Source: Polyangiaceae bacterium
GTDB lineage: Bacteria; Myxococcota_A; Polyangia; Polyangiales; Polyangiaceae
Assembly (NCBI GenBank): GCA_029261965.1
Contig: JAJDAH010000263.1
Span: forward strand, 1 to 52,805
DNA length: 52,805 bases
Direction of reading: 5' to 3'
Shown: positions 7,424 through 45,922 of the stretch, piece by piece
Position numbering within the stretch: the first letter of the stretch is position 1
Layout: the number at the start of each line of letters is the position of its first letter
Made by a program: the position numbers and the translations under genes
Notes under the pieces: generated by a model
The model's input: only the letters and a program-made list of their open reading frames with translations
What the model was told of the DNA's origin: nothing
Databases searched by the model: none

Positions 7424-9349
7424 ATGCGGCGCTCGTTCGGGATCGCGTGGGGCGTCGGCGTTGCGGCACTCCTGACGTCCACTGGTGTCGCCGCTCAACC
7501 CACACCCTCGTTGGACCTCCGACTGTTTCGTCCACCGGTCGATCCGGCGGGCTCGCTCTACCTGGAACCCACGGCGACCCCTGGGCAGGGAAACTGGAAC
7601 GTTGGCGTTTGGTTTTCTCACGCCATCGATCCCATCGTGTTGGAGGACGAGAACGGAGAGGCCGGAAGTGCCATCGCCCACCAATCGTCGGTGGACTACG
7701 TCGCCTCGCTCGGATTGCTCAGCCAGCTGGCTGTGGGTATCACGCTGCCGACCGTCATCTACCAAGACGGGGACGATGTCGGCGGGCTCGCCGGAACCCA
7801 GGTACTGCCCCAGACCGCTGTCGGCGACATCGGCTTCGTGGCCAAAGCCACGCTCGTGCCCACCGAAGCCCTCGGCGGCTTCGGATTGGCGGCGCTCGGC
7901 GAGGTCACCGGTCCGAGCGGAGACCGGCGCTCGTACCTCGGCGAAGGAAAAGCGACCGGTGGCATGCGGCTGCTCGGCGAAATGCGGTGGCCGGGGCTCG
8001 CCGTCCGAGGCACGGCGGGAGCCAAGATCCGAAGCCGCAAGCGCATCTTCGCCAACGAAGAGTTCGGCCACGACCTGCCCTGGGGACTCGGCTTCGCCAT
8101 CAAGCCGCAAGTGATCGGTCTCGACAACTCCGGTCGTTGGGAGGTCATGGCGGAGGCCCGTGGAGCCATTGCCTTCTCCCCCGAGTTCGGTTCCGGCCCG
8201 CAATCGCCCGTCATGGCGGGCCTCAGCACGCGGTTCACCAGCGGGGACATCTCGTTCCTCGCCGGGCTCGAACTCCCGCTCAGCAACGCGGTGGGCGTGC
8301 CAACCGTCCGTCCCGTTTTTTCCGTGGGGTGGGCACCCCGGTTCCTGGACGAAGACGGGGACGGCGTCGGCGACGAGACGGACGAATGCACGGAGCTGGC
8401 AGAGGACCGTGACGGTTTCGAGGACGCTGACGGGTGCCCGGACTTCGACGACGACGACGACGGCGTGCCCGACGACAGCGACCAATGCAAGAGCGAAGCA
8501 GAAGACGAAGACGACTTCGAAGACGACGACGGTTGCCCCGATCCCGACAACGATCGTGACGGCATCGCCGACGAGCAGGACGCGTGTCGCAACGAAGCCG
8601 GCCCTGCCACAGGGGATCCGAAAACGACGGGTTGCCCCGTCTTGGACACCGACGGCGACGGCGTGCTCGACGATGGCGACCGCTGCATCGACCAGCCAGA
8701 AGACGTCGACGGTTTCAAAGACGAGGACGGGTGCCCCGACCCGGACAACGACCGCGACTCGGTGCTCGACGAAGAGGACGCTTGCCCACTCGAACGCGGA
8801 CTCCAGCGGAGCGACCCGGAGCTGAACGGATGCCCGAACCCAGACAGCGACGGCGACACGTTCGACGACAAAGACGACAAGTGTCCGAACAAACCCGAAG
8901 ATTTCGACGGCGTCGAAGACGAAGACGGCTGTCCGGATCTCGACGACGAGAAGCCCGTGTGGCAGCGCGCCAAGCCGCTCGTCGAAGTCGAACAAAAGGC
9001 CGGCGACCTGGTCCTGAAGTGGCGCATTGCGCCTCGTTTCGTCGGTACCGGCAGCGCCACGAACCTCGACCCGAAAACCAGCCCTTCGCTGCGGGCTCTC
9101 GCACAGATGCTCAACACCAACCCGACGTGGATCGTCGCAGTCGGCGTGCGCCCGAGCGCGGACACGTCGGAGGCCGCCCAAGCCGCGCTCGGTCGGTCCT
9201 TTGTCATCGCTCACGAGCTTCGCACGCTGACCCACCGAGACTCGGTAGCCGAGACCGTGGGCTGGGCAGCCGTGAAGCAGCTGCCGAACGCGACGAGAGA
9301 CGGGTTGGGGGTCCTCGTCTTCGCGCCTCCCGGCACCAAGCCGAAGTGA
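7424..9349 (+). CDS. Outer-membrane-associated thrombospondin type 3 repeat protein with degenerate OmpA-like tail
   Basis: The 641-aa protein has a signal peptide ending near residue 24 (STGVAA). A ~280-residue domain follows, rich in alternating strands as in outer-membrane barrels ([25 protein letters not shown]). Residues ~305-520 hold about seven Asp-rich TSP3 repeats (DxDxDGxxDxxDxC and PEDxDGFxDxDGCPD), which bind calcium in known proteins. The last ~100 residues resemble an OmpA-type peptidoglycan-binding domain ([13 protein letters not shown]), but the usual GHTD motif is replaced by GVRPSADT. The role would be structural in the envelope. The stop overlaps the next start as GTGA. Confidence 0.8.
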
Positions 9350-11466
9350 GATCCCGAGCTACGCTAGCGGCCACCGCGTCGCTCGTGCTCGCGGCTCTCC
9401 CAGCGCTTGCCCAATCGCGCGGCGCAGTGCGGCGACCGCCGCGCGCGTTCGCTCAACCCATCGGTCTCGAGGGTGTTCCCACGGTGCCGAACCCGCCATC
9501 GTCGACGGCGCTCACCGACCGTTTGGGAGTCGGCGTCGCCCGGCGGCTCCTGCTTTCGCCAGACCGCGACGAAAGAATCCGCGCGCTCGTCCGCCTGGGG
9601 GTGGTGGGGACGCCACGAGCGCTCGAACACCTCGCTCGGGCGGTTGGTCCCACCGGAAGAGCGCGCACGGCCCACGAGCGACTGGTCGCCGTTCGCGCTC
9701 TGGGGCGACACGCCGCGCGCCCCGAGGTGCGGCAAACCCTCGTCCGACTGATGGCCGGGGTCAGCGGAGCCGAAAAAAACGCCGATCCAGTCGAGAGGTT
9801 GGCGCAGCACGGCGCAGCGCTGGCGCTCGCCGCGGCCGACGATCCGGAGGCGCTGCAAGCGCTCGGAAAATCGCTCCGACAGGAAGGCCCAGCGTCGGAA
9901 GCCGCCGCGGTCGCTCTCGTCGCTCACCCCCCGCGAAACCTCGATCCCATCCTCCACGCTCGCGGCACGCCGAGCCTCGCACTCATCCACGCCCTCGGTC
10001 GACTCGGTGATCAGCGCGCTTTCCATGCCCTCCGCGCCTTCGTGCGCCGAGGCAGCCCCGAGGTGCGCGCGGAAGCGGCCATCGCGCTGACCCGACTCGG
10101 GGATCTCGAAACGGTCGCGCTTGCGCGACAATGGTTGGGCGCTTCCGAACCCCGGCTACGGATAGCCGCGGGTCGCATCTTGCTCATGGCCCGCACCTCG
10201 GACGCCGCGCCCGCGGTGGCCAAGCTACTCGCCGACGACGCCACCCACGAACGCAGCATCGAGCTGGCATTTTTCGCCCCGACCCGAGCGCTGCTCCCAC
10301 GACTCGAAGAGCTGATCGACGATCGCCCCGAGGCCGCCCTCGCCGCCATCGGGCGCGCTGGTGGTCCAAAAGCTGTGAAGAGCTTGATCGCGCGCTTGCG
10401 TGACCCGAAGGTCGCGGACCTCGCCGGCTACGCTCTCTCGCTAGCGGCGGGGGCCGAAGCGACACGGGGCATCGAAGCGGCCATCAGGTCTTCGGAGCCG
10501 AGGATCCGCCGGCTCGGATTGCGCGCCGCCGTGGTGCGACAGCTCGGGCTCGGCACTCGCGTTCACGGCAGCCTCGAGCTGGCCCGCGCGTTGCTCGCGG
10601 CCGAAGCCTCGACGGATCGAGCCGTCGGTGCCTGGGCGCTCATGCTCTTGGATGAGCGGCGCGGGCGGGAGCTGCTGCAAAGCCCCGACCACGTCGTCGT
10701 TCGAGCGGCGGCGCGCGGCTTGGCCGCAGCCAGCGGAGAAACGCTGAAGATTGCAGCCCAGCGCCTCGCCTCGGAAAAAGATCCACTCACCCGCGCGGCG
10801 CTCGGCATGGCGCTGAGAGATGTCACCGTGGCTGACCTCGTGCCCACCAACGTCTTGTTGGAGCAACTGGAGCAAGGCGGGGCGGACGCGCCGCTCGTCG
10901 CGCGCGCGCTTGCTGCGAGGGACGACGAGGCTCTCCGACCTCGACTCGATAGACTGTTGACGAGCGGCGACCCGGTGATCCGGGCACATGTGGCGCTCGG
11001 CCTCGCCTACAGCAAGCGTTCCAGTGTCATTGGGACACTCGAACGAGCGTACCGATTCGAAACCGACGACGGCGTCCGACTCGCCATCGTCGGCGCGCTC
11101 GCTCACCGACCCGAGAGGCAGCGGCGCCGTCCGCTCCAGCTCGCCGCGCGCCTCGACACCGATGGCGAGACGCGAGCGCGGGCGAGACTGGCCCTCGGCG
11201 GGACGCCGATCCGGACCGATGCCACCGGGGTGAGCGTCAGTTGGTTGCGCCTCGTGCCCTCCGGGGGAGAGGAGACGTTGCCCGAGCCGACGGCCGTTTC
11301 GGTACATTCGAGCGGCGGGCTCGCACTACCTGCCGTCGCCGACCCCGACGGCCTCATGGTCCTAACGGGCCTGCCCGCCGGCCTCGTGGACCTCCGGGTT
11401 GCGCCCACGCCCAGGGCCAAGCAGGTTGAAGCGAGCAAGGGGCACCTCGGTGGCAAGAGCAAGTAG
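9346..11466 (+). CDS. Secreted HEAT-repeat protein
   Basis: The 706-aa protein starts at GTG 9346, overlapping the preceding stop, and has a signal peptide ([19 protein letters not shown]). Nearly all of the rest is a chain of ~30-residue helical HEAT or PBS-lyase-type repeats, for example [20 protein letters not shown] and [19 protein letters not shown]. Such solenoids act as protein-binding scaffolds. The last ~100 residues form a beta-rich segment ([29 protein letters not shown]). It is probably exported together with the upstream TSP3 protein and may interact with it; this is inferred from coupling only. Confidence 0.75.
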
Positions 11467-34177: not shown

Positions 34178-35026
34178 ATGCGGGCAACGTTCTACGGCGT
34201 ACGCGGGTCGATCCCCGCTCCGGGCCCCGCCACGGCGAAATATGGGGGTAACACCTCGAGTGTCGAGCTCCGCCTCGATGACGGGACGACCGCGCTATTG
34301 GACGCCGGGACGGGGCTACGCGAGCTCGGTGGCAAGCTCGCCACCGAGGGCTATGGGCCGCTGCACTTGCTCTTGAGTCACGTGCACTGGGACCACATCC
34401 AAGGACTGCCATTCTTCGGGCCCATCTGGAACAAGGACACCCAGCTGGTCGTGCACCCACTCGCCAACGGTCTCCAGGAACGATTCCGCAAACAGCTCAC
34501 GATCTTCGACGAGATCCACTTTCCCGTGCGAGCGCGGGACATTCCGTGCACCATCGATTTCCTCGACCACGACTCCGAGGTGTGGCGAGTCGGATCGGCC
34601 GAGATCACCCGCATCTCGCTCAACCACCCCGGCGGTTCTCAGGGGTTCCGCATCGTCGACGACAGTGGTCACAGCGTGGCGTACCTGACGGACAACGAAA
34701 TTTCTGCGCCGGACGTCGTCACCCCGATCGACGAGCTCGCCAAATTCGCCGAGGGGGTCGACCTGTTGATCCACGACTCTCAATACCTTCCTGAAGAGAT
34801 GCCGTTGAAACGAGGCTGGGGACACTCCGTGGTGGACGAAGTCTTCGAGCTCGGGAAAAAGGCGCAGCCGAAAAAGCTGGTGCTGTTCCATCACGATCCG
34901 GGCCGGAGCGACGCTCAACTCGACGCCGTCGGCAAGCGGGCGAGCCAGTGGTTCACCGACAACTGTCCCGGGACCGAGGTGGTCGTCGCCACCGAAGGTC
35001 AGAGCTTCGATCTTGCCAAGCTCTGA
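34178..35026 (+). CDS. MBL-fold metallo-hydrolase
   Basis: The 282-aa protein has the metallo-beta-lactamase metal site LSHVHWDHIQGLPF (His68, His70, Asp72, His73), LLDAGTGLREL upstream, LNHPGGSQGF, and LIHDSQY and LFHHDPGRSD downstream. This layout resembles phosphodiesterase-like MBL enzymes of the cyclic-nucleotide or tRNase Z side of the superfamily. The substrate is unknown. ATG 34178 fits the conserved RATFYGVRGSIPAPGP opening; an in-frame extension upstream is poor in family character. The gene overlaps the convergent propeller gene by 28 bases. Confidence 0.88.
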   Translation: MRATFYGVRGSIPAPGPATAKYGGNTSSVELRLDDGTTALLDAGTGLRELGGKLATEGYGPLHLLLSHVHWDHIQGLPFFGPIWNKDTQLVVHPLANGLQERFRKQLTIFDEIHFPVRARDIPCTIDFLDHDSEVWRVGSAEITRISLNHPGGSQGFRIVDDSGHSVAYLTDNEISAPDVVTPIDELAKFAEGVDLLIHDSQYLPEEMPLKRGWGHSVVDEVFELGKKAQPKKLVLFHHDPGRSDAQLDAVGKRASQWFTDNCPGTEVVVATEGQSFDLAKL

Positions 35027-36432
35027 GGGCGGCGGCGACGCGCCCCGCCTGCCAGCAGCAGCAGAACGAGACCGGCGACGGAGCCACCAGCGTGACCGCT
35101 CGGCGTCGAACGACACGACGCGCCCCGGGCTCGAATCACCGCCCTGCCCGCATCGGACGCGCCGGCGCCACCGCCTCCCTGCCCCGCCTCGGTCGCGGCT
35201 CCGGCGTCCGCCGTACCGCCATCGGCCGCGCAGCGAGCAATGAGCTCACAGAGCTCCGGCCATCGCGAGGGACAGCGGTCTCCGGACGACGTGCCCGCCG
35301 GGCAGTCGACCACGCCCTCGGCATCGCGGAGGTTCATCAGAATCGTGAACGGCGCCGCGTCGGCGAGGGTGAAGCTCGGGCTCGGAGCGAACCCGAGCTC
35401 GAAACCGACGGAGAATTCCGACGAGCAGACGTAGACTCCGGCCGGGGTCCAAGCCGCGCAAGTGATCGATCCGTCGAAGATTTTCTCGAAGACGAAATCG
35501 CTCGTCGACGCGCGCCACAAACCGAGCGCGGCCGAGTCGACGACCGTCCCATCGAGCGGGTTACCGTAGCCGATCAGGACTTCGGCACCGTCCGGCGAGA
35601 GGGCGAATCCGAGCATCTTGCCGCCGGCGCGGTGGACCTCGACCCAGCTTTCGCCGGCGTCGTTCGTCACGAGCAACACGTCGTCGGCTGCGACGCCGTC
35701 GTTCGACGTGCGGAAGCCGCTGACGCGCACGAATACCCGGTCGGCATCGGTCGGGTGCACGGCGCCGATGAACGATGACGCGTCCGAGCCGGTCCCCGGC
35801 ACGGGGAACGATTCCCAACTAACACCACGATCCGAGCTTCTGAAGATCGCTCCGCCGCCGATGGCCTGACTGGTCACGTAGATCCGGCTCGGATCCGACG
35901 GCGCGGGGTCGAGCGTGAGACCGAGCATGTTTTCTTCGAGGTTGGCGCCCGCCTGGGTCCACGTCACACCGTTGTCCGGGGACTGCCAGACTTGGTTCAA
36001 GAACCGCCCTCCCCCCAGCCCCTCGCTGATGAGCGCGAGGCTGCTGGTCGGGTCTTCCTTCTCGACGGTGACGTCGATGACGAAACGGGCGTCCAACCCC
36101 GACTTGACGAAGTCGAACTGGCACCCGAGATCGTGAGAAACCCCGAGTCCGGAGAACATGCCCGCGATGATGGTGCCGTCAGCCGTCACACCAACTGCCG
36201 GATCTTCCGTCCCTCCGTATCCGACCGACTCTTCACAGATGATTTGCCACGTCCGCCCGGCATCGACGCTTCGGAGAACTCCGAAGGTGGTCCGCAGTAT
36301 CAGCCGATCGGGATTACTCGGGAACTCGACGAGCTGCTGGGATTGCGGAAAGCGGCCATTCGCGGCTGCCGGGACCGCGAGCGCAAACGCAGCGAGCAAC
36401 GCCCCGGCGCTGACGAGCGAGCGAACCAGCAT
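34999..36432 (-). CDS. Secreted NGRFP beta-propeller protein with MYXO-CTERM tail (copy 1)
   Basis: The 477-aa protein has a signal peptide (GALLAAFALAVPAAA) followed directly by NGRFPQSQQLVEF. The body is a sortilin/BNR-type propeller with repeated Asp-box-like motifs (SVDAGRTWQIIC, SPDNGVTWTQAG, SSDRGVSWESFP, TNDAGESWVEVH). A Cys-containing spacer (CPAGTSSGDRCPSRWPELC), a Gly/Ala linker, ASCRSTPSG, a hydrophobic segment and RRRRP form a MYXO-CTERM-type anchor. It is a paralogue of the protein at 41324-42820. Function is unknown. TACCCT lies 10 nt before the ATG. Confidence 0.8.
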   Translation of the reverse strand: MLVRSLVSAGALLAAFALAVPAAANGRFPQSQQLVEFPSNPDRLILRTTFGVLRSVDAGRTWQIICEESVGYGGTEDPAVGVTADGTIIAGMFSGLGVSHDLGCQFDFVKSGLDARFVIDVTVEKEDPTSSLALISEGLGGGRFLNQVWQSPDNGVTWTQAGANLEENMLGLTLDPAPSDPSRIYVTSQAIGGGAIFRSSDRGVSWESFPVPGTGSDASSFIGAVHPTDADRVFVRVSGFRTSNDGVAADDVLLVTNDAGESWVEVHRAGGKMLGFALSPDGAEVLIGYGNPLDGTVVDSAALGLWRASTSDFVFEKIFDGSITCAAWTPAGVYVCSSEFSVGFELGFAPSPSFTLADAAPFTILMNLRDAEGVVDCPAGTSSGDRCPSRWPELCELIARCAADGGTADAGAATEAGQGGGGAGASDAGRAVIRARGASCRSTPSGHAGGSVAGLVLLLLAGGARRRRPQSLARSKL

Positions 36433-36471: not shown

Positions 36472-36597
36472 GCTCACCGCAGCGCTTTCCGACGTGACCG
36501 CCGCCGGAGGCAACGCGCGTGACACAACGTGTGTCTTTTGCAGATCGACATGCATGCGCGCGGTCGTTCTACTAGACTGACACGAGGGTTCTCGACG

Positions 36598-38118
36598 TTG
36601 CAGGATTCGAAAAAGGTCACGCTGAGACGCACGGCGCTCACCGCGTTCGTCGTGGCGTCTCTCGGCGGCGCCTCCTCGATGGCCTGCAGCGCCGATGGCG
36701 ACAAAAAGATTCTGTCTCGGCAAGAGCTGCTCGATCCCGAGACATGCAAGGAGTGCCACGCGGACCACTACCGCGAGTGGTCCGGCAGCATGCATGCTTA
36801 CGCGGCCGATGACCCGGTATTCCTCGCGATGAATCGCCGTGGCCAGGAAGAAACCAACGGCGCCCTTGGCGACTTTTGCATCAACTGCCACGCCCCGATG
36901 GCAGTGCGCGAAGGCGCAACGACCGACGGGCTCAACATCGACGAGGTGCCCCGAGAGCTCAAGGGGATCACCTGTTACTTCTGCCACAACGTCGAGAGCA
37001 TCGACGGCCAGCACAATAACCCCCTTGTGCTGGCGAACGACCAGACGATGCGTGGCGGGATCCGAAATCCGGTCGAAGGCGCCGCGCACGACTCGGCCTA
37101 CTCGGCGCTGCACGATTCGCAGACCGTGGAGAGCTCACGGCTGTGCGGCACCTGCCACGACATCACGGTGCCGTCCCCGCCGGGGCCGGCCGAGGTCGAG
37201 CTCGAGCGCACGTTCAAGGAGTGGCAGGGGTCGGTTTTTGGGCCGGAGATTGCTCCGGATTCCGTGGTCCCGTGCGGGAGCAGTTGCCACATGACCCCGA
37301 GCGAGCGCCCGGTTGCCGAAGTCGACGGGGTCGACGTGCCGATTCGGTTCGCCCACGGCCACGAGTTCGCCGCGGTCGACGTGGCGTTGACGCCATTTCC
37401 GGAAATGGACCGCCAGCGGCAGCTCATTCAGGAGGCGCTCGACACCACGCTGCGTGTCGATGTCTGCGTCGAGACGTTGCCGAACGGCTCCGCGATTAGG
37501 GTCGTTCTCGACAACGTCGGTCCTGGGCACCGTTGGCCGTCGGGCGCCTCCCAAGATCGACGCGCCTTCGTGGAAGTCCGTGCTTTCGAGGGTCCAGAGG
37601 TCGTCTACGAGAGCGGTGTGCTCGCCGACGACCGACAGGCGCTCGACCTAGACGAACCCGATCTGTGGCTACTACGAGACCGTCTCATCGGGAAGAACGG
37701 CGAAGAGGTTCACATGTTTTGGGAGGTGGCGAGCGTCATCGAAGAAACAATCCCGGCGCCGATCACTGCTGACAGGTCGAATCCCGATTTCTTCGTGACG
37801 CACGTCCGCCGAGATTTTCCGAACTCGGGCATCATCGCTGACGCGTTCGTCGACCGTGTGACCGTGCGCGTCCGCATCCGCCCGATGGGATTCGACGTTC
37901 TGGACGACCTCGTAGCGTCGGGTCATCTCGACGCGGCCGTGAAGGACGAGATGCCGATATTCGACCTCGTACCCAACCGTCACATCCCGAGCGTCGAAAG
38001 CGTCACCTTCGAATGGAGCGAGGAGACACGAAACGATCCGCGATTTCAGACTTTCTTCGACACGACAGTACCGGGTCGCCGTTTCGACTGCATCGGCATG
38101 CGGACGAACGCCCGCTGA
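36598..38118 (+). CDS. Multihaem cytochrome c lipoprotein (cytochrome c554-like)
   Basis: The 506-aa product from TTG 36598 (GAGGG upstream) has a KK..RR n-region and a lipobox SSMAC (Cys30). ATG 36550 is an in-frame alternative. Haem c sites CxxCH occur at 50-54 (CKECH), 94-98 (CINCH), 126-130 (CYFCH) and 183-187 (CGTCH). A fifth, CGSSCH at 226-231, has three residues between the Cys. The first ~240 residues resemble the c554-type fold. The remainder is a ~260-residue beta-rich domain with no further haem motif. It would carry electrons at the outer face of the inner membrane or in the periplasm; the partner is unknown. Confidence 0.8.
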   Translation: MQDSKKVTLRRTALTAFVVASLGGASSMACSADGDKKILSRQELLDPETCKECHADHYREWSGSMHAYAADDPVFLAMNRRGQEETNGALGDFCINCHAPMAVREGATTDGLNIDEVPRELKGITCYFCHNVESIDGQHNNPLVLANDQTMRGGIRNPVEGAAHDSAYSALHDSQTVESSRLCGTCHDITVPSPPGPAEVELERTFKEWQGSVFGPEIAPDSVVPCGSSCHMTPSERPVAEVDGVDVPIRFAHGHEFAAVDVALTPFPEMDRQRQLIQEALDTTLRVDVCVETLPNGSAIRVVLDNVGPGHRWPSGASQDRRAFVEVRAFEGPEVVYESGVLADDRQALDLDEPDLWLLRDRLIGKNGEEVHMFWEVASVIEETIPAPITADRSNPDFFVTHVRRDFPNSGIIADAFVDRVTVRVRIRPMGFDVLDDLVASGHLDAAVKDEMPIFDLVPNRHIPSVESVTFEWSEETRNDPRFQTFFDTTVPGRRFDCIGMRTNAR

Positions 38119-38120
38119 AT

Positions 38121-38624
38121 CTACTGCGGACCGGTGATCGCGAACTCGCCGTTCAAGCAGAAGCTGAACACCGTCTTCTCCACCGTGCCGTCGCTGAGCT
38201 CCGCGTTGACGGTGATCTCCCAAAGGCCCGGCATGAACAGGTTCACCGGTTCGAGCACGTACTCGCCGTCCGCGAGCTCGGTCGTCGTAATGGCCTTCGG
38301 CGAAGCGTGTCCGTGGTCGGGCATCCACGTATCGGCAAACGTCACCGCGCCCGCCACCGGCATGCCCCCGGAATCGCTGACCTTGACCGTCCACGTGTTG
38401 TCGAACTGCTCCGGCGGCGCGGGGTTCGCCGCGACGAGCTCGAAGGTGGCCAGCCCCTCGTCGCCCAGCTGACTGAGGCCCACGGCGATGCCCTTGCCGG
38501 CGCCGCTACATACCGGCGCTTGCGTACCGTCCGGTCCGTTGCCCGGCTCGCTGCCGCCATCGCTGCCACAGGCCGGGAGGGTGACGGTGACGGCGATGAG
38601 CAGTAGCGAATATTTCGAGAACAT
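38121..38624 (-). CDS. YtkA/FixH-like lipoprotein
   Basis: The 167-aa product has a lipobox (TVTLPAC, Cys19) and starts at ATG 38624, with GAGGTAA upstream. The mature domain is an Ig-like beta sandwich with the segment PVAGAVTFADTWMPDHGHAS. The MPxHGH pattern is typical of YtkA-like proteins, which are proposed to bind copper. Two Cys (PVCSGAG, FSFCLNG) may form a disulfide. It is convergent with the cytochrome gene, separated by only 2 bases. A triple 15-bp repeat lies just upstream of its start. Confidence 0.75.
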   Translation of the reverse strand: MFSKYSLLLIAVTVTLPACGSDGGSEPGNGPDGTQAPVCSGAGKGIAVGLSQLGDEGLATFELVAANPAPPEQFDNTWTVKVSDSGGMPVAGAVTFADTWMPDHGHASPKAITTTELADGEYVLEPVNLFMPGLWEITVNAELSDGTVEKTVFSFCLNGEFAITGPQ

Positions 38625-38633
38625 CGGTTTACC

Positions 38634-38678
38634 TCGGTCCAGCGCCAATCGGTCCAGCGCCAAGCGGTCCAGCGCCGA
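38634..38678 (-). repeat. Three tandem 15-bp repeats upstream of the YtkA-like gene
   Basis: On the plus strand TCGGTCCAGCGCCAA occurs at 38634-38648 and 38649-38663, and GCGGTCCAGCGCCGA at 38664-38678. They end 10 bases from the start codon. They could be operator iterons or a slippage product; in the open frame they would read ALDRL repeats. The rest of the gap up to 38856 shows no other gene. Confidence 0.75.
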
Positions 38679-41323: not shown

Positions 41324-42820
41324 TCAGCCTCGGCGTCGACGCCGAACCGCTAGAGCAACCCCGCCGAGCATCAGCACAAGTGCGCCGACCGACGCCGCCG
41401 AGCCCTTGGCTGGCGCGCGACAAGAGCACCCGCCGCTGTCCCCCGCCGTGCCGTCGTCGTCGACCCCTACTCCGCCGGATCCACCGCTGCCGGTCACTCC
41501 CCCTCCGGTACCCTGGCCACCGGTGCCCGAGCCAGCAGCGCCACCGTCGGGGCAATTGCTCAAGAGCTGGCAAATGTTCTCCGGAGTATCGGCGCATTCT
41601 GTCGCCACGTCGGTGCCCGCTCCACACTGCTCGATCGCGCCGAGCCCGTCGAAATCGAGAAGCCCCGTCAAGGGGCTCGGGTCGTTCACGGTGAAGTCGA
41701 CCCCCTGCGTCTCCCCGAGTTCGAAGCCTTGTACGAACTGGGAGCCGCACACGTAGATGGTGTTGCCGGACCAGGTGAGGCAGCTCACGGGGTCCGAAAG
41801 GATCTGCTCGAATTGCAACGCTCCACCAGTGGCAACTGGCGCCGTGTCGGCTTTGAACACGCCGAGAGCATCCTGGTCGACACTCACCTCCGGGTTTTTC
41901 GGATCGCCGAACCCGGCGAGCACCGTCCCCCCGTCTGGCGAAAGTGCAAAACCGAGCAGCCGGGCGTCCGCGCCCATGGATCGCGTCCACGTCTGACCGC
42001 CGTCGGTGGTGACGGTGAGGAAATCGTCGGCTCGAATCGCCTTCGTGTCGCCGGGCTCCGGATTGCTGTTGGGCTTTTCGCCGTCGACCCGCACATAGAC
42101 GATGTCGGGGTTGGTCGGATGCACGGCACCGATGAACGCGTTGTGCGACATGTCGGTTCCGGGGATGTCGAAGCTCTGCCAGTTTTGCCCGCGGTCGGTC
42201 GTGCGCATGAGCAGGCCTTGGTCGCCATTTCTCGCCGTCACGTAGATGGTGTTCGGCTCCGAGGGCGCTGGATCGTGAGTGAACAAGATGAGACCGGAAT
42301 CGAGGTCGGCCCCGAGCTGTTGCCAGGTGCGTCCGTCGTCACCGCTGGCCCAGAGCTGATTGATGAATCCGCCGCCCACAGCACCGCCGGCGGAGACGAT
42401 GACGAGAACGTTGCTGGGATTCTGACGCTCGACCGAGACGTCGGCGATGAAACGCGTCCCGAACTCGTCTGTTGGAAATTCCCAGTCGCAGCGGTCGTGA
42501 CTGAGCGAGAGACCCTTGAAGATCCCGGCAAAAATCGTCCCGTCGCCGCTCACGCCAATCGCCGGGTCTTCGGTATCGCCGTAGCCGACCGCGCCCTCGC
42601 ACATGATGAACCAGTTCTGACCGCGGTCGGGCGAAGTCACTATTCCGTAGGTCGCCCGAAGCACGATTCGATCCGTGTTGCCGGGCTGAACTAGCAGTTG
42701 CTGCGCGCGTGGAAACCGACCGTTCGCGAGTGCGGGGGTCGATATCGTCGTCGCCGCAATCAACGTCGACACCGCGATCGCCGAGGTCAGCGCGACACCG
42801 AGAATTTTCGCGGAACTCAT
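41324..42820 (-). CDS. Secreted NGRFP beta-propeller protein with MYXO-CTERM tail (copy 2)
   Basis: The 498-aa protein has a signal peptide (TLIAATTISTPALA) followed by NGRFPRAQQLLVQP. The propeller repeats are SPDRGQNWFIMC, SGDDGRTWQQLG, TTDRGQNWQSFD and TTDGGQTWTRSM. A Cys spacer (QCGAGTDVATECADTPENIC) and a Gly-rich linker lead to a canonical MYXO-CTERM ending: GGCSCRAP, hydrophobic ALVLMLGGVALAV, RRRRRG. MYXO-CTERM proteins are exported through the type II pathway and anchored on the surface after Cys-directed processing. It shares almost every conserved block with copy 1 (for example GYGDTEDPAIGV). Function is unknown. Confidence 0.85.
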   Translation of the reverse strand: MSSAKILGVALTSAIAVSTLIAATTISTPALANGRFPRAQQLLVQPGNTDRIVLRATYGIVTSPDRGQNWFIMCEGAVGYGDTEDPAIGVSGDGTIFAGIFKGLSLSHDRCDWEFPTDEFGTRFIADVSVERQNPSNVLVIVSAGGAVGGGFINQLWASGDDGRTWQQLGADLDSGLILFTHDPAPSEPNTIYVTARNGDQGLLMRTTDRGQNWQSFDIPGTDMSHNAFIGAVHPTNPDIVYVRVDGEKPNSNPEPGDTKAIRADDFLTVTTDGGQTWTRSMGADARLLGFALSPDGGTVLAGFGDPKNPEVSVDQDALGVFKADTAPVATGGALQFEQILSDPVSCLTWSGNTIYVCGSQFVQGFELGETQGVDFTVNDPSPLTGLLDFDGLGAIEQCGAGTDVATECADTPENICQLLSNCPDGGAAGSGTGGQGTGGGVTGSGGSGGVGVDDDGTAGDSGGCSCRAPAKGSAASVGALVLMLGGVALAVRRRRRG

Positions 42821-42826
42821 GGGCAA

Positions 42827-42832
42827 ATAGTA
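42827..42832 (-). promoter_or_regulatory. Candidate leaderless -10 box of propeller copy 2
   Basis: On the minus strand TACTAT (42832-42827) stands 6 nt before the ATG at 42820, with no ribosome-binding site. Confidence 0.4.
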
Positions 42833-42964
42833 TCTGCATCGCCCGCCGAACGCTAACCCTCGGATCGAGCTCGTGCTGCCCCCCAAGCCACGAGACGAGA
42901 CACTCGAATCCCCCTTGTTAATCCGGCCGCGAACGACCGCCTGCAGCCCGGTTGCTGCCTTCGG

Positions 42965-42970
42965 TATAAG
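42965..42970 (+). promoter_or_regulatory. Possible -10 box and ribosome-binding site of the fusion gene
   Basis: TATAAG lies 6 nt before the GTG at 42977, but the overlapping AAGGGGA is also a good Shine-Dalgarno sequence. The two readings exclude each other. Confidence 0.3.
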
Positions 42971-42976
42971 GGGACC

Positions 42977-45922
42977 GTGACGCAATCGAGCGAGCATCCA
43001 CCGCGCAAACGCCGCTCCCGGCGCGGCTGGCGCTCCGGACTCGGGAAAGTTCGCGCTGGGGCGCAAAACGCGCTCGAGATCATGCGACTCGGACGTCTCA
43101 ACCCTCGGCAGGGCGCAAGCTACGAAGTGGCGCACGTCGGCAAACACTATCGGCTGCGTCGCTACGAAGGACCCGGGCGCGCCGAGGGTCCGCCGATCGT
43201 TCTCATTCCACCGCTGATGATGACCGCCGAGGTCTACGACGTTGCGCCCGAGGCCAGCGCGGCGGCCACGCTCGTCGCTGCCGGGGTCGATACCTGGGTC
43301 GTCGACTTCGGCTCACCCGAAGAAGAAGAGGGCGGCATGACCCGCACTCTCGATGACCACATTCACTCGGTAGACGAAGCGGTCGACCGCGTCCGCTCGA
43401 CTACCGGGCGGGACGTGCACCTCGGGGGGTACTCGCAGGGAGGCATGTTCGCCTATCAAGTCGCTGCCTACCGCCGGAGTGAGGGCATCGCTTCACTCAT
43501 CACCTTTGGTAGCCCCGTCGACATCCATCGCGGGCTGCCCAAGATAAGCACCGACCTCACGGCACGCATGATCCGTGGGATGCGCCCTTTCGTCGAGCCG
43601 ACGCTGAAGCGAGTCGAAGGCCTTCCAGGCATTCTGACCAGCACCGGGTTCAAAGTGATGAGCTTCCGGAAGGAGCTCGGTCAGATCGTGGATTTTCTCG
43701 CAAAGCTCCACGACCGCCGTGCGCTCGAAAAACGGGAAAACCGTCGGCGGTTCTTGGGCGGCGAAGGGTTCGTCGCATGGCCCGGCCCGGCGTTGCTCAA
43801 GTTCATCGAAGAGTTCATCGTGCACAATCGCATGACGTCCGGCGGTTTCGTCATCGACGGACGCGCCATCACCCTCGCCGACATCACCTGTCCAATCCTC
43901 TACTTCGTAGGATCACGGGACGACGTCGCGCGGCCACCCACCGTGCGGGCAATCAAAGAAGCCGCGCCCCGAGCCACCGTCTACGAAGTCATGATCCCCG
44001 CGGGTCATTTCGGCATGGTGGTCGGATCGACGGCGATGCGCGAATCGTGGCCGACGGTCATCGAGTGGTTGACCTGGACCGAGCAGGAGGGAGGGCTACC
44101 GAAGCTCTTGGCACCGGAAGAACCGATGGTGGACGACGACGCCGTCATCGAGGATCTCGCCTTCGGTGACGGGCTCGACTTCGAGCTCTTCTACGACGTC
44201 GCCATACGCACCGCGGAATCGGCATGGAATTGGGTCGGCGACACCGCCGAGGACGCTGGCGACACCTTCGACCAGGTCCGCTACCAAGTCCCCCGCCTGC
44301 TCAAGCTCAGGAACATCCCGGACGACGACCGGATCAGCCCATCGCTGGCCCTTGCAAAACAAGCCAAGAAGATCCCCGACGGCACGGTCTTCATCTACAA
44401 GGGCCGCGCGATCACCTACGCGCAAGCGGACGAGCGCGTCGACCATGTCGTGCGCGGACTGATTCACTCCGGCGTTTACCCCGGAGAGCGAGTGGGCGTC
44501 TTCATGCGAAGCCGACCGAGCTACCTGTCGACGGTCGGCGCTCTCTGCCGCCTCGGCGCGGTCCCGGCATTGATGCCCCCGGATCTCGACACTGACGAGC
44601 TACGCCGCGCTGTCAACGTCGGCGAGCTTCGATTCATTCTCACCGATCCGGAGCACGCCGAACGTGCGCGCGACGGGTTCGCCGGCAAAGTGTTGGTGCT
44701 CGGCGGCGGGCCGGACCGCGACGTCGTCAGCGGTGTAGTGGACATGGAGCAGATCGATCCCGCGAGAGTAAAGCTGCCGAGCTGGTACCGACCGAACCCG
44801 GGTCGTGCCGCGGATCTGGCGATGATTTTCATCACCATCGGGCAGGGTCGAGATCGGGCGGCGAAGATCACCAACCGCCGGTGGGCTTTTTCGACCTTCG
44901 GCGCCGCAGCAGCCTGCACTCTGACTCCGAGAGACACCGTCTACTGTTGCTTGCCGCTGCATCATCCCGCCGGCCACTTGGTCAGCGTCGGGGCGGCGCT
45001 CGTCGGTGGCGCTCGGCTCGCGTTGGCGACGAGCTTCGAGCCGACGGTTTTCTGGGACGAGGTGCGACGCTCGGGCTCGACGGTCGTGTTCTACGCCGGC
45101 GAGATGGTGAGAGAGCTCGTCGATGCGCCGTCCAGACCGGGGGAGACGGGCAACCCGCTCCGGCTTTTTGCGGGCAGCGGCATGCGCGCCGACGTGTGGC
45201 GACGTGTGCAAGCGCGTTTCGACACCGGTGTGCTCGAGTTCTACGCCGCCACTGAAAACAACGCCGTGCTCGCCAACGCTTCGGGCAAGAAGCTCGGCGC
45301 CCTCGGCAGGCCGCTGCCGGGCACGGCGGAAACCGCAGTCGGCGTCTGGGACTTCGAGGCCGAAGATTTTGCACGCGACCAGGCCGGTAGAATCTTGCGC
45401 GCAGAAGTCGACGAGGTGGGGATCCTCCTGAGCCGCATGAGCCCAACGCAGCCCAAACCCGACGAAGGGCGTGTGGTGATGGATGCGTTCGAACCCGGGG
45501 ACCGCTGGTACGTGACGCGCACGTTGATGCGGCAAGATGCGGACGGGGACTTCTGGTTCGTCGACCAGCTCGGCAACGTCATCCGTACCCCCGACGGCCC
45601 CGCGTTCACTCGTCCGATCGAAGACGTATTGTACGAGCTGCCGGCGGTTCAGCTCGCCGTCGTCTACGGCGCCGAAAACGGCGGGCCAGCAGCGCCTGAA
45701 GCGGCGCTTCTTCTGCGTGCAGGCGAGCGATTCGACCCAGCGGAGCTTCTCGACCTGCTGCGCCAGCACGGAACGGCGATCCTGCGAGTCGTGCGCATCG
45801 TGCGCAGCATCCCGATGACCGACGGCTACCGGCCGCTCAAATCCGAGCTTCGCAAGGGGCGCGTCGACGCGGAACGCATCTACCGCTACGACGAAGCCGC
45901 CGGGGCCTACGTCGAACTCTAG
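42977..45922 (+). CDS. PhaC-like alpha/beta hydrolase fused to an acyl-CoA ligase-like (ANL) domain
   Basis: The 981-aa protein has two halves. Residues ~50-375 resemble PHA synthase (PhaC)-type alpha/beta hydrolases with nucleophile elbow GYSQG (Ser153 instead of the usual Cys), an Asp at 315-316 and His344. Residues ~450-980 resemble very-long-chain acyl-CoA synthetases (FATP/FadD type): YKGRAITYAQADERVD, YAATENNAVLANASG at 756-770 and a C-terminal GYRPLKSELRKGR with the expected lysines. The ATP-binding P-loop (TSGTTGxPK in relatives) reads TIGQGRDRAAK at 620-630 and is poorly conserved. Similar fusions are known in actinobacteria. It may hydrolyse and reactivate an acyl chain, but ligase activity is doubtful. 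GTG 42977 has AAGGGG upstream. Confidence 0.85.
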   Translation: MTQSSEHPPRKRRSRRGWRSGLGKVRAGAQNALEIMRLGRLNPRQGASYEVAHVGKHYRLRRYEGPGRAEGPPIVLIPPLMMTAEVYDVAPEASAAATLVAAGVDTWVVDFGSPEEEEGGMTRTLDDHIHSVDEAVDRVRSTTGRDVHLGGYSQGGMFAYQVAAYRRSEGIASLITFGSPVDIHRGLPKISTDLTARMIRGMRPFVEPTLKRVEGLPGILTSTGFKVMSFRKELGQIVDFLAKLHDRRALEKRENRRRFLGGEGFVAWPGPALLKFIEEFIVHNRMTSGGFVIDGRAITLADITCPILYFVGSRDDVARPPTVRAIKEAAPRATVYEVMIPAGHFGMVVGSTAMRESWPTVIEWLTWTEQEGGLPKLLAPEEPMVDDDAVIEDLAFGDGLDFELFYDVAIRTAESAWNWVGDTAEDAGDTFDQVRYQVPRLLKLRNIPDDDRISPSLALAKQAKKIPDGTVFIYKGRAITYAQADERVDHVVRGLIHSGVYPGERVGVFMRSRPSYLSTVGALCRLGAVPALMPPDLDTDELRRAVNVGELRFILTDPEHAERARDGFAGKVLVLGGGPDRDVVSGVVDMEQIDPARVKLPSWYRPNPGRAADLAMIFITIGQGRDRAAKITNRRWAFSTFGAAAACTLTPRDTVYCCLPLHHPAGHLVSVGAALVGGARLALATSFEPTVFWDEVRRSGSTVVFYAGEMVRELVDAPSRPGETGNPLRLFAGSGMRADVWRRVQARFDTGVLEFYAATENNAVLANASGKKLGALGRPLPGTAETAVGVWDFEAEDFARDQAGRILRAEVDEVGILLSRMSPTQPKPDEGRVVMDAFEPGDRWYVTRTLMRQDADGDFWFVDQLGNVIRTPDGPAFTRPIEDVLYELPAVQLAVVYGAENGGPAAPEAALLLRAGERFDPAELLDLLRQHGTAILRVVRIVRSIPMTDGYRPLKSELRKGRVDAERIYRYDEAAGAYVEL

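What the first reader, a model, noticed from the sequence alone, without database searches (positions are those of the whole stretch)
42977..45922. Hydrolase/ligase fusion with a degenerate ATP-binding loop
The ligase half keeps the overall ANL layout and the C-terminal lysines, but the TSGTTGxPK-type P-loop reads TIGQGRDRAAK (620-630). The hydrolase half has a Ser nucleophile (GYSQG) in a PhaC-like fold. The ligase may have lost adenylation activity or may use a changed mechanism, for example acyl transfer or binding.
Basis: partly seen in the sequence, partly recalled or inferred. Interest (0 to 1): 0.55.

Follow-up and report, generated by a model that had tools for sequence, protein, structure and literature searches.

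The report
Lipase fused to dead acyl-CoA synthetase
This bacterial gene joins a fat-splitting enzyme to a fatty-acid-activating enzyme whose ATP site looks erased, and relatives sampled from mycobacteria and other bacteria share the loss although the family is still named as an active synthetase.

Summary
The 981-aa ORF (42977-45922, +) belongs to NCBIfam PRK07868, which I take to be the family of the mycobacterial lipid-droplet 'lipase / acyl-CoA synthase' (Rv1683/BCG1721). TIGQGRDRAAK replaces the ATP-binding P-loop, and this is no local mutation: of 98 fusions sampled, 92 lack the loop and all 92 carry Arg where ANL enzymes have the catalytic C-terminal (A10) Lys; the other six, from Myxococcota, keep loop and Lys. 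So 'C-terminal lysines kept' is wrong at the residue that matters. In the ligase-half tree, rooted on stand-alone synthetases, the degenerate proteins form one clade and the intact fusions lie outside; the hydrolase-half tree agrees with weaker support. The simplest history is one ancient loss after fusion. The lipase triad is invariant (60 of 60), the dead half is under purifying selection and models as a complete ANL fold. In four Myxococcota loci a FATP-type synthetase gene with normal motifs lies directly beside the degenerate fusion (one has an in-frame stop). Best reading: a neutral-lipid lipase carrying a repurposed, non-adenylating synthetase domain. Loss of canonical chemistry is well supported by sequence; the new role is inferred. 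Published 'bifunctional activity' statements are the main counter-evidence.

The parts
42977..45922 (+). Fusion gene, 981 aa: N-terminal PhaC/lipase-like hydrolase plus C-terminal degenerate FATP-type acyl-CoA synthetase
   Evidence: NCBIfam NF005898/PRK07868 976 bits, cut-off 925; full-length homologues
43109..44101 (+). Hydrolase half, residues 45-375
   Evidence: Pfam Abhydrolase; TIGR01836 110.9 bits; model matches PhaC (Z 23.9) and a monoglyceride lipase (Z 23.8)
43433..43435 (+). Ser153, nucleophile of GYSQG
   Evidence: S in 60 of 60 fusions of the full-length alignment; codon checked
43919..43921 (+). Asp315, proposed triad acid
   Evidence: D in 60 of 60 fusions; codon checked
44006..44008 (+). 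His344, proposed triad base
   Evidence: H in 60 of 60 fusions; codon checked
44303..45868 (+). Ligase half, residues 443-964, complete two-subdomain ANL fold
   Evidence: PF00501 141.7 bits; model residues 443-964 align with 5ie0_A, Z 38.5, rmsd 2.6, 468 residues
44834..44866 (+). Erased A3 P-loop, TIGQGRDRAAK (620-630)
   Evidence: loop pattern absent in 92 of 98 fusions
45236..45256 (+). A5 motif EFYAATE (754-760): Tyr, Thr and Glu kept, Gly to Ala
45518..45523 (+). A7 Gly-Asp replaced by Arg848-Thr849
45563..45610 (+). A8 region DQLGNVIRTPDGPAFT (863-878): the GEN of FRWKGENVST is gone
45830..45832 (+). Arg952 at the A10 catalytic Lys position
   Evidence: R in 92 of 92 loop-less fusions, K in 6 of 6 intact fusions and 8 of 8 stand-alone FATP-type ligases

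Best explanation
The gene encodes a serine lipase/esterase of neutral-lipid storage whose C-terminal half is an ancient pseudo-acyl-CoA-synthetase. An intact hydrolase-FATP fusion existed first (six living myxobacterial examples are shown; ancestry is inferred from trees). In one lineage the ATP P-loop, the A10 Lys and much of the A8 loop were lost together, Lys becoming a fixed Arg (correlation shown, single event inferred). The fold and a remodelled pocket were kept under selection (shown). The half most likely no longer makes acyl-AMP or acyl-CoA (inferred from motifs). It probably binds fatty acid or acyl-CoA, or docks to the lipid droplet or to an active synthetase partner, and so controls or positions the lipase (inferred, not shown).
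For: P-loop and A10 state co-segregate: 92 rows loop-less with Arg, 6 rows loop with Lys, of 98 fusions (3 truncated or odd rows set aside). Degenerate rows form one clade in the ligase-half tree built without the motif columns (SH-aLRT 100, 52 rows; 96/99, 28 rows) and, with weaker support, in the hydrolase-half tree (SH-aLRT 89). Three intact fusions scanned score 560-601 bits to the FATP-type model PRK08279, three degenerate ones 287-322. Ligase-half dN/dS 0.08-0.53 in 10 degenerate pairs, 9 of them below 0.36. Lipase triad unchanged in 60 of 60. In 4 of 33 myxobacterial fusion loci with at least 2 kb held upstream, a FATP-type ligase gene with normal motifs lies directly beside the fusion on the same strand; three are open, the G191 copy has one in-frame stop. 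Full fusions co-occur with WS/DGAT genes, 30 of 40 genomes against 71 of 195 (Fisher p 8e-6, not corrected for kinship); this genome has two.
Against: [quoted passage not shown] the primary paper was not held, so what was measured is unknown to me. A5 Glu is kept in 31 of 34 myxobacterial rows (E or D in all 45 and 13 actinobacterial rows) and A7 Asp in 29 of 34 myxobacterial rows, so part of the nucleotide/metal site remains. No ligand was modelled. The adjacent-synthetase pattern is confined to one clade; none of the 48 loci of the first scan shows it, 44 of them with 2 kb or more upstream. 10 of 40 fusion genomes have no WS/DGAT match. The hydrolase-half tree puts two odd, loop-less fusions (G183, G121) with the intact G128 and a third (G199) apart, while the ligase tree puts all three beside the degenerate clade, so more than one loss is possible.
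Confidence: 0.62

Rival explanations
1. The ligase half is still an active acyl-CoA synthetase that works without the usual P-loop and with Arg instead of Lys.
For: Published descriptions of dual activity or dual effect of BCG1721 (passages); A5 Glu/Tyr and a complete fold are kept; purifying selection.
Against: P-loop and A10 Lys are lost together in 92 of 98 fusions, while the 6 intact fusions and 8 stand-alone ligases compared keep the motifs. The loop drifts freely in sequence and length, unlike a new catalytic loop.
Confidence: 0.13
2. The hydrolase half is an acyl-CoA-dependent acyltransferase or thioesterase and the ligase half captures acyl-CoA for it.
For: Closest folds include PhaC, one entry with bound CoA, and the acyltransferase/thioesterase RhlA; reported TAG increase on overexpression (passages).
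Against: A Ser nucleophile and a fold equally close to monoglyceride lipases; S150A of the mycobacterial homologue is reported to impair TAG lipolysis (passages); the A8 loop, which contacts CoA in ANL enzymes (recalled), is lost.
Confidence: 0.12
3. The ligase half is a structural remnant that only stabilises the lipase or anchors it to the lipid droplet; no ligand is involved.
For: The ligase half changes relatively faster than the hydrolase half in degenerate proteins (median distance ratio 1.18 in Myxococcota, 1.26 in Actinobacteria, against 0.98 in intact fusions).
Against: Replacements are fixed at motif positions of the former active site (Arg952 100%, Ser734 98%, Ala757 98% of 54 rows), which plain relaxation would not readily give.
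Confidence: 0.1
4. The odd loop is a local mutation, frameshift or assembly error in this genome.
For: The assembly is in 480 contigs.
Against: The frame is open over 981 aa and is matched end to end by homologues with the same loss.
Confidence: 0.01

Closest known systems
NCBIfam NF005898 / PRK07868 'acyl-CoA synthetase' (taken to be the Rv1683 / BCG1721 / MSMEG_3767 family)
   Same: Same domain order and similar length; above the equivalog cut-off; loop-less with A10 Arg like the 45 and 13 actinobacterial rows.
   Different: The model is named as a synthetase; this sequence is myxobacterial, and its A7 Asp is also gone, unlike most myxobacterial members (kept in 29 of 34).
FATP-type long-chain acyl-CoA synthetases (PRK08279, FadD6/FACL6, FATP2)
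   Same: Closest solved structures by sequence (FATP2, E 1.3e-47) and likely parent family of the ligase half.
   Different: The 8 stand-alone FATP-type rows keep the P-loop, A7, A8 and A10 motifs; here they are lost. FACL6 is reported as an acyl-CoA synthetase that supports TAG storage (PMC4260918, abstract).
PHA synthase PhaC / monoglyceride lipases
   Same: Hydrolase-half fold and TIGR01836 similarity.
   Different: Below the PhaC cut-off; Ser where PhaC has Cys (recalled); no TIGR01836 match over cut-off in this genome.
DIP2 FLD2 of eukaryotes
   Same: An ANL domain with degenerate adenylation motifs kept in a protein that controls neutral lipids (PMC9342972, passages).
   Different: Tandem FAAL-like domains, no hydrolase fusion named in the passages; another ANL subfamily.
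Inactive NRPS A domains complemented in trans (e.g. albicidin)
   Same: A dead adenylation domain with a separate active one encoded in the same cluster (PMC8949500, passages).
   Different: No carrier domain found here; the candidate partner is a FATP-type ligase, seen in 4 loci only.

Membership tests
PRK07868 / NF005898 (Rv1683-type fusion) | Full-length profile score above the curated cut-off | tested here: met
   976 bits, cut-off 925, residues 22-978
PRK07868 / NF005898 (Rv1683-type fusion) | Acyl-CoA synthetase activity, as the family name says | not testable with these tools
   Sequence argues against it: P-loop and A10 Lys absent here and in 92 of 98 fusions
PRK07868 / NF005898 (Rv1683-type fusion) | GXSXG lipase half with Ser-Asp-His | tested here: met
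   S153, D315, H344 invariant in 60 of 60
FATP-type acyl-CoA synthetase (PRK08279) | Profile score above cut-off 625 | tested here: not met
   287 bits
Active ANL adenylating enzyme | A3 P-loop (T/S)SG(T/S)TGxPK | tested here: not met
   TIGQGRDRAAK
Active ANL adenylating enzyme | A10 catalytic Lys | tested here: not met
   Arg952
Active ANL adenylating enzyme | A5 Tyr/Thr/Glu | tested here: met
   EFYAATE, Gly to Ala
Active ANL adenylating enzyme | A7 Asp | tested here: not met
   Thr849
ANL superfamily fold | Two-subdomain ANL fold | tested here: met
   AlphaFold model, mean pLDDT 78; Z 38.5 to 5ie0_A over 468 residues
PhaC class III | TIGR01836 above cut-off 365.3 | tested here: not met
   110.9 bits
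PhaC-like / lipase alpha-beta hydrolase | Fold similarity | tested here: met
   PhaC Z 23.9, rmsd 3.8, 273 aligned; Rv0183 lipase Z 23.8, rmsd 2.8, 239 aligned; residues 213-274 of the model are low confidence

The most novel reading that the evidence does not exclude
The 'acyl-CoA synthase' half of the Rv1683/BCG1721 lipid-droplet lipase family is an ancient pseudoenzyme. Its ATP site was converted, with Arg952 replacing the catalytic Lys, into a sensor for fatty acid or acyl-CoA (lipase product or its activated form) that gates the fused lipase, in some lineages as a partner of an active FATP-type synthetase encoded next door. It would be a bacterial parallel to the degenerate ANL domain of eukaryotic DIP2.
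Probability: 0.35. Interest if true: 0.78.

Novelty: new variant of a known kind. Interest (0 to 1): 0.6.

Why it matters
Rv1683/BCG1721 is cited in several papers as a bifunctional synthase/lipase of the triacylglycerol stores linked to mycobacterial dormancy and drug tolerance (passages). If the synthase half is dead, models of that pathway need correction and the real acyl-CoA supplier must be sought elsewhere (for example FACL6). The set also gives an unusually clean evolutionary series, from stand-alone enzyme to intact fusion to pseudoenzyme fusion, in which the cause and use of a lost active site can be tested directly.

Tried and rejected
Local mutation or assembly error: rejected. Conserved operon: in 40 myxobacterial loci I saw no neighbour shared widely; the larger clusters c1 and c2 are mostly ORFs lying over the fusion itself in other frames, and other sharing is mainly between close relatives. 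Only 10 neighbours or companions were scanned against Pfam. What stands out is the adjacent FATP-type gene in 4 of 33 fusion loci with 2 kb or more upstream. A FATP-type gene beside the 48 loci of the first scan: none outside the fusion (which replaces the coarser filter; 44 of 48 have 2 kb or more upstream). PHA storage as the role: no TIGR01836 match over cut-off in this genome. Three fusions were left out of the 98-row count: G183 (ends at a contig end), G121 (870 aa, no C-terminal part) and G199 (761 aa); none matches the loop pattern and the two trees place them differently. L010 and the G149 copy are nearly identical, and the 13 drawn actinobacterial genomes include that of L014, so the rows are not all independent, though no two strings are identical. 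The first scan used six peptides of the query, so it favours near kin; the phylum draws do not depend on them. The support for all intact-motif rows on one side of a branch is 88/96, not starred. Literature searches for a published pseudo-synthetase reading (open-licence PMC only, lists capped) showed none in the titles and abstract openings listed or in the passages read; the primary BCG1721 paper was not held. Model coordinates were not in the script box, so no pocket was measured. Structure jobs used 34 of 49 and 24 of 49 available sequences. That Rv1683/BCG1721 belongs to this family is inferred from the papers' descriptions and from one match per genome in the actinobacterial genomes; its own sequence was not fetched. 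That the window's phylum is Myxococcota is inferred from named loci. ANL motif names A3-A10 and their roles, the Cys of PhaC and the CoA contact of A8 are recalled.

Mended on re-checking: the adjacent synthetase gene of G191 has one in-frame stop and is no longer called intact; the dN/dS bound and one bit score were corrected; the hydrolase-tree placement of the odd rows was added.

Full report
What is there. The ORF at 42977-45922 (+) encodes 981 aa from a GTG start. It is a full-length member of NCBIfam PRK07868 (976 bits, cut-off 925), a hydrolase-plus-AMP-binding fusion family. The hydrolase half models as an alpha/beta hydrolase closest to PHA synthases and monoglyceride lipases, with Ser153, Asp315 and His344 invariant in 60 of 60 aligned fusions. 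The ligase half models as a complete ANL enzyme (residues 443-964, Z 38.5) and is closest in sequence to FATP-type synthetases (FATP2 is the top solved-structure match by sequence).

The observation. The string TIGQGRDRAAK lies at residues 620-630, where FATP-type enzymes have TSGTTGxPK. Of 23 AMP-binding matches in this genome at E <= 1e-10, 22 have a recognisable P-loop; this is the one that does not. A7 Gly-Asp and the A8 GEN stretch are also gone. Pfam's AMP-binding_C is not reported for this protein; it is reported for 6 of 6 intact fusions (5 over cut-off, the sixth 24.4 against 24.5) and for 1 of 3 other degenerate ones scanned.

Family-wide, not local. A scan of genome contigs with six query peptides gave 51 loci, of which 48 are full fusions. 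By my reading, 40 of 235 genomes of the window's phylum hold a full or near-full fusion: 31 degenerate, 6 intact, 3 truncated or odd. In Actinobacteria 13 of 296 genomes hold a match at E <= 1e-100. Across 98 fusions (101 rows less the 3 odd ones), 92 have no P-loop and Arg at A10, and 6 have the P-loop and Lys; no row mixes the states. Other positions change less uniformly (Myxococcota n=34, Actinobacteria list n=45, draw n=13): A5 Gly to Ala in 33, 44 and 13; A8 Glu to Gly in 29, 44 and 13; A5 Glu kept in 31, 7 and 7 (Asp in 38 and 6 of the two actinobacterial sets); A7 Asp kept in 29 of 34 Myxococcota and 4 of the 13 drawn Actinobacteria, and not among the five commonest residues in the list of 45. 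The loop itself varies in sequence and length. This is an erased loop around a remodelled site, not a new conserved loop.

History. In the ligase-half tree with the motif columns removed, stand-alone FATP-type ligases, intact fusions and degenerate fusions separate, and the 52 degenerate rows form one clade (SH-aLRT 100; 96/99 for 28 rows in the careful tree). All rows with intact motifs lie on one side of a branch (88/96, not starred). The hydrolase-half tree, rooted on one long-branched stand-alone hydrolase, also groups the 52 degenerate rows (SH-aLRT 89, not starred) with intact fusions outside, but it puts the odd fusions G183 and G121 with the intact G128, and G199 apart, whereas the ligase tree puts these three beside the degenerate clade on long branches. 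So one main loss is the simplest history, and further separate losses are possible. Actinobacterial proteins nest inside the degenerate myxobacterial ones, which suggests transfer of an already degenerate gene; this is inference. Three intact fusions score 843, 777 and 729 bits to PRK07868 and 591, 601 and 560 to the FATP model PRK08279, against 287-322 to PRK08279 for three degenerate ones including this protein.

Still selected. Ten close degenerate pairs give ligase-half dN/dS of 0.08-0.53 (9 of 10 below 0.36; NG86, with synonymous saturation a concern) and hydrolase-half 0.02-0.27; the one intact pair gives 0.25 and 0.29. Ligase-to-hydrolase distance ratios are 1.18 and 1.26 in degenerate sets against 0.98 in intact fusions: mild relaxation, not decay. 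Between intact fusions and the degenerate clade the ligase half has three fixed switches (A639S, N734S, K952R) and the hydrolase half none, so the fixed change is confined to the ligase half.

Surroundings. The gene stands alone here, between a minus-strand BNR-type protein and a minus-strand PilZ protein. In 4 myxobacterial loci (G191, G065, G200, G205), of 33 fusion loci with 2 kb or more upstream, a FATP-type ligase gene with normal motifs lies directly beside the fusion on the same strand. Three are open over their whole length; the G191 copy has one in-frame stop. The G200 copy, the one scanned, scores 743 bits to PRK08279, cut-off 625. Full fusions co-occur with WS/DGAT genes (30 of 40 against 71 of 195 genomes, Fisher p 8e-6, not corrected for relatedness), and this genome has two. 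This fits neutral-lipid storage; 10 of 40 fusion genomes lack them.

Literature. Papers describe BCG1721/Rv1683 as a lipid-droplet protein whose overexpression raised TAG in non-replicating cells and lipolysis on reactivation, the latter impaired by S150A (PMC10699116, passages), and as having both activities (PMC6572852, passages). Two of four benzoxaborole-resistant isolates carried changes in Rv1683 (PMC5571309, part 1 of 2 of the text read). The primary BCG1721 paper was not held. I saw no paper that calls the synthase half inactive, within the searches named. A eukaryotic parallel exists: DIP2's second ANL domain has degenerate motifs, and mutating them did not abolish function (PMC9342972, passages).

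Verdict. Loss of canonical adenylation in this protein and in its clade: about 0.85 likely from sequence. That the half now serves as a binding, gating or docking domain for the lipase: about 0.6. A fatty-acid or acyl-CoA sensor specifically: about 0.35. The family is known; its likely pseudoenzyme nature and the surviving intact fusions are the new part.

Noticed in passing
window 34999-36432 (-) and 41324-43147 (-): Two BNR/VPS10-like proteins that look related and secreted; MYXO-CTERM sorting model matches at 18.1 and 22.7 bits (cut-off 20). The second ORF as listed overlaps the fusion's start, but its likely signal-peptide start lies further in (by eye).
   Followed up: partly
window 36529-38118 (+) and 38121-38663 (-): Cytochrome c554-like protein convergent with a YtkA-like protein.
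   Followed up: no
literature on Rv1683: Two papers give opposite domain orders for Rv1683/BCG1721 (PMC10699116: synthase N-terminal; PMC11980559: lipase N-terminal; passages). The sequences here have the lipase first.
   Followed up: yes
L101 (G183), L105 (G121), L107 (G199): Three further fusions with other degenerate or truncated ligase halves on long branches, placed differently by the two trees; possibly independent losses or assembly breaks.
   Followed up: partly
L110, L113, L115, L118: A FATP-type acyl-CoA synthetase gene with normal motifs lies directly beside the degenerate fusion on the same strand; the L110 copy has one in-frame stop.
   Followed up: yes
L108 (G090) 9244-10335: A stand-alone hydrolase of the same subfamily (332 bits to positions 18-360 of the fusion model) with no ligase-half match in its 19.9-kb locus; possibly the pre-fusion state or a secondary split.
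   Followed up: partly
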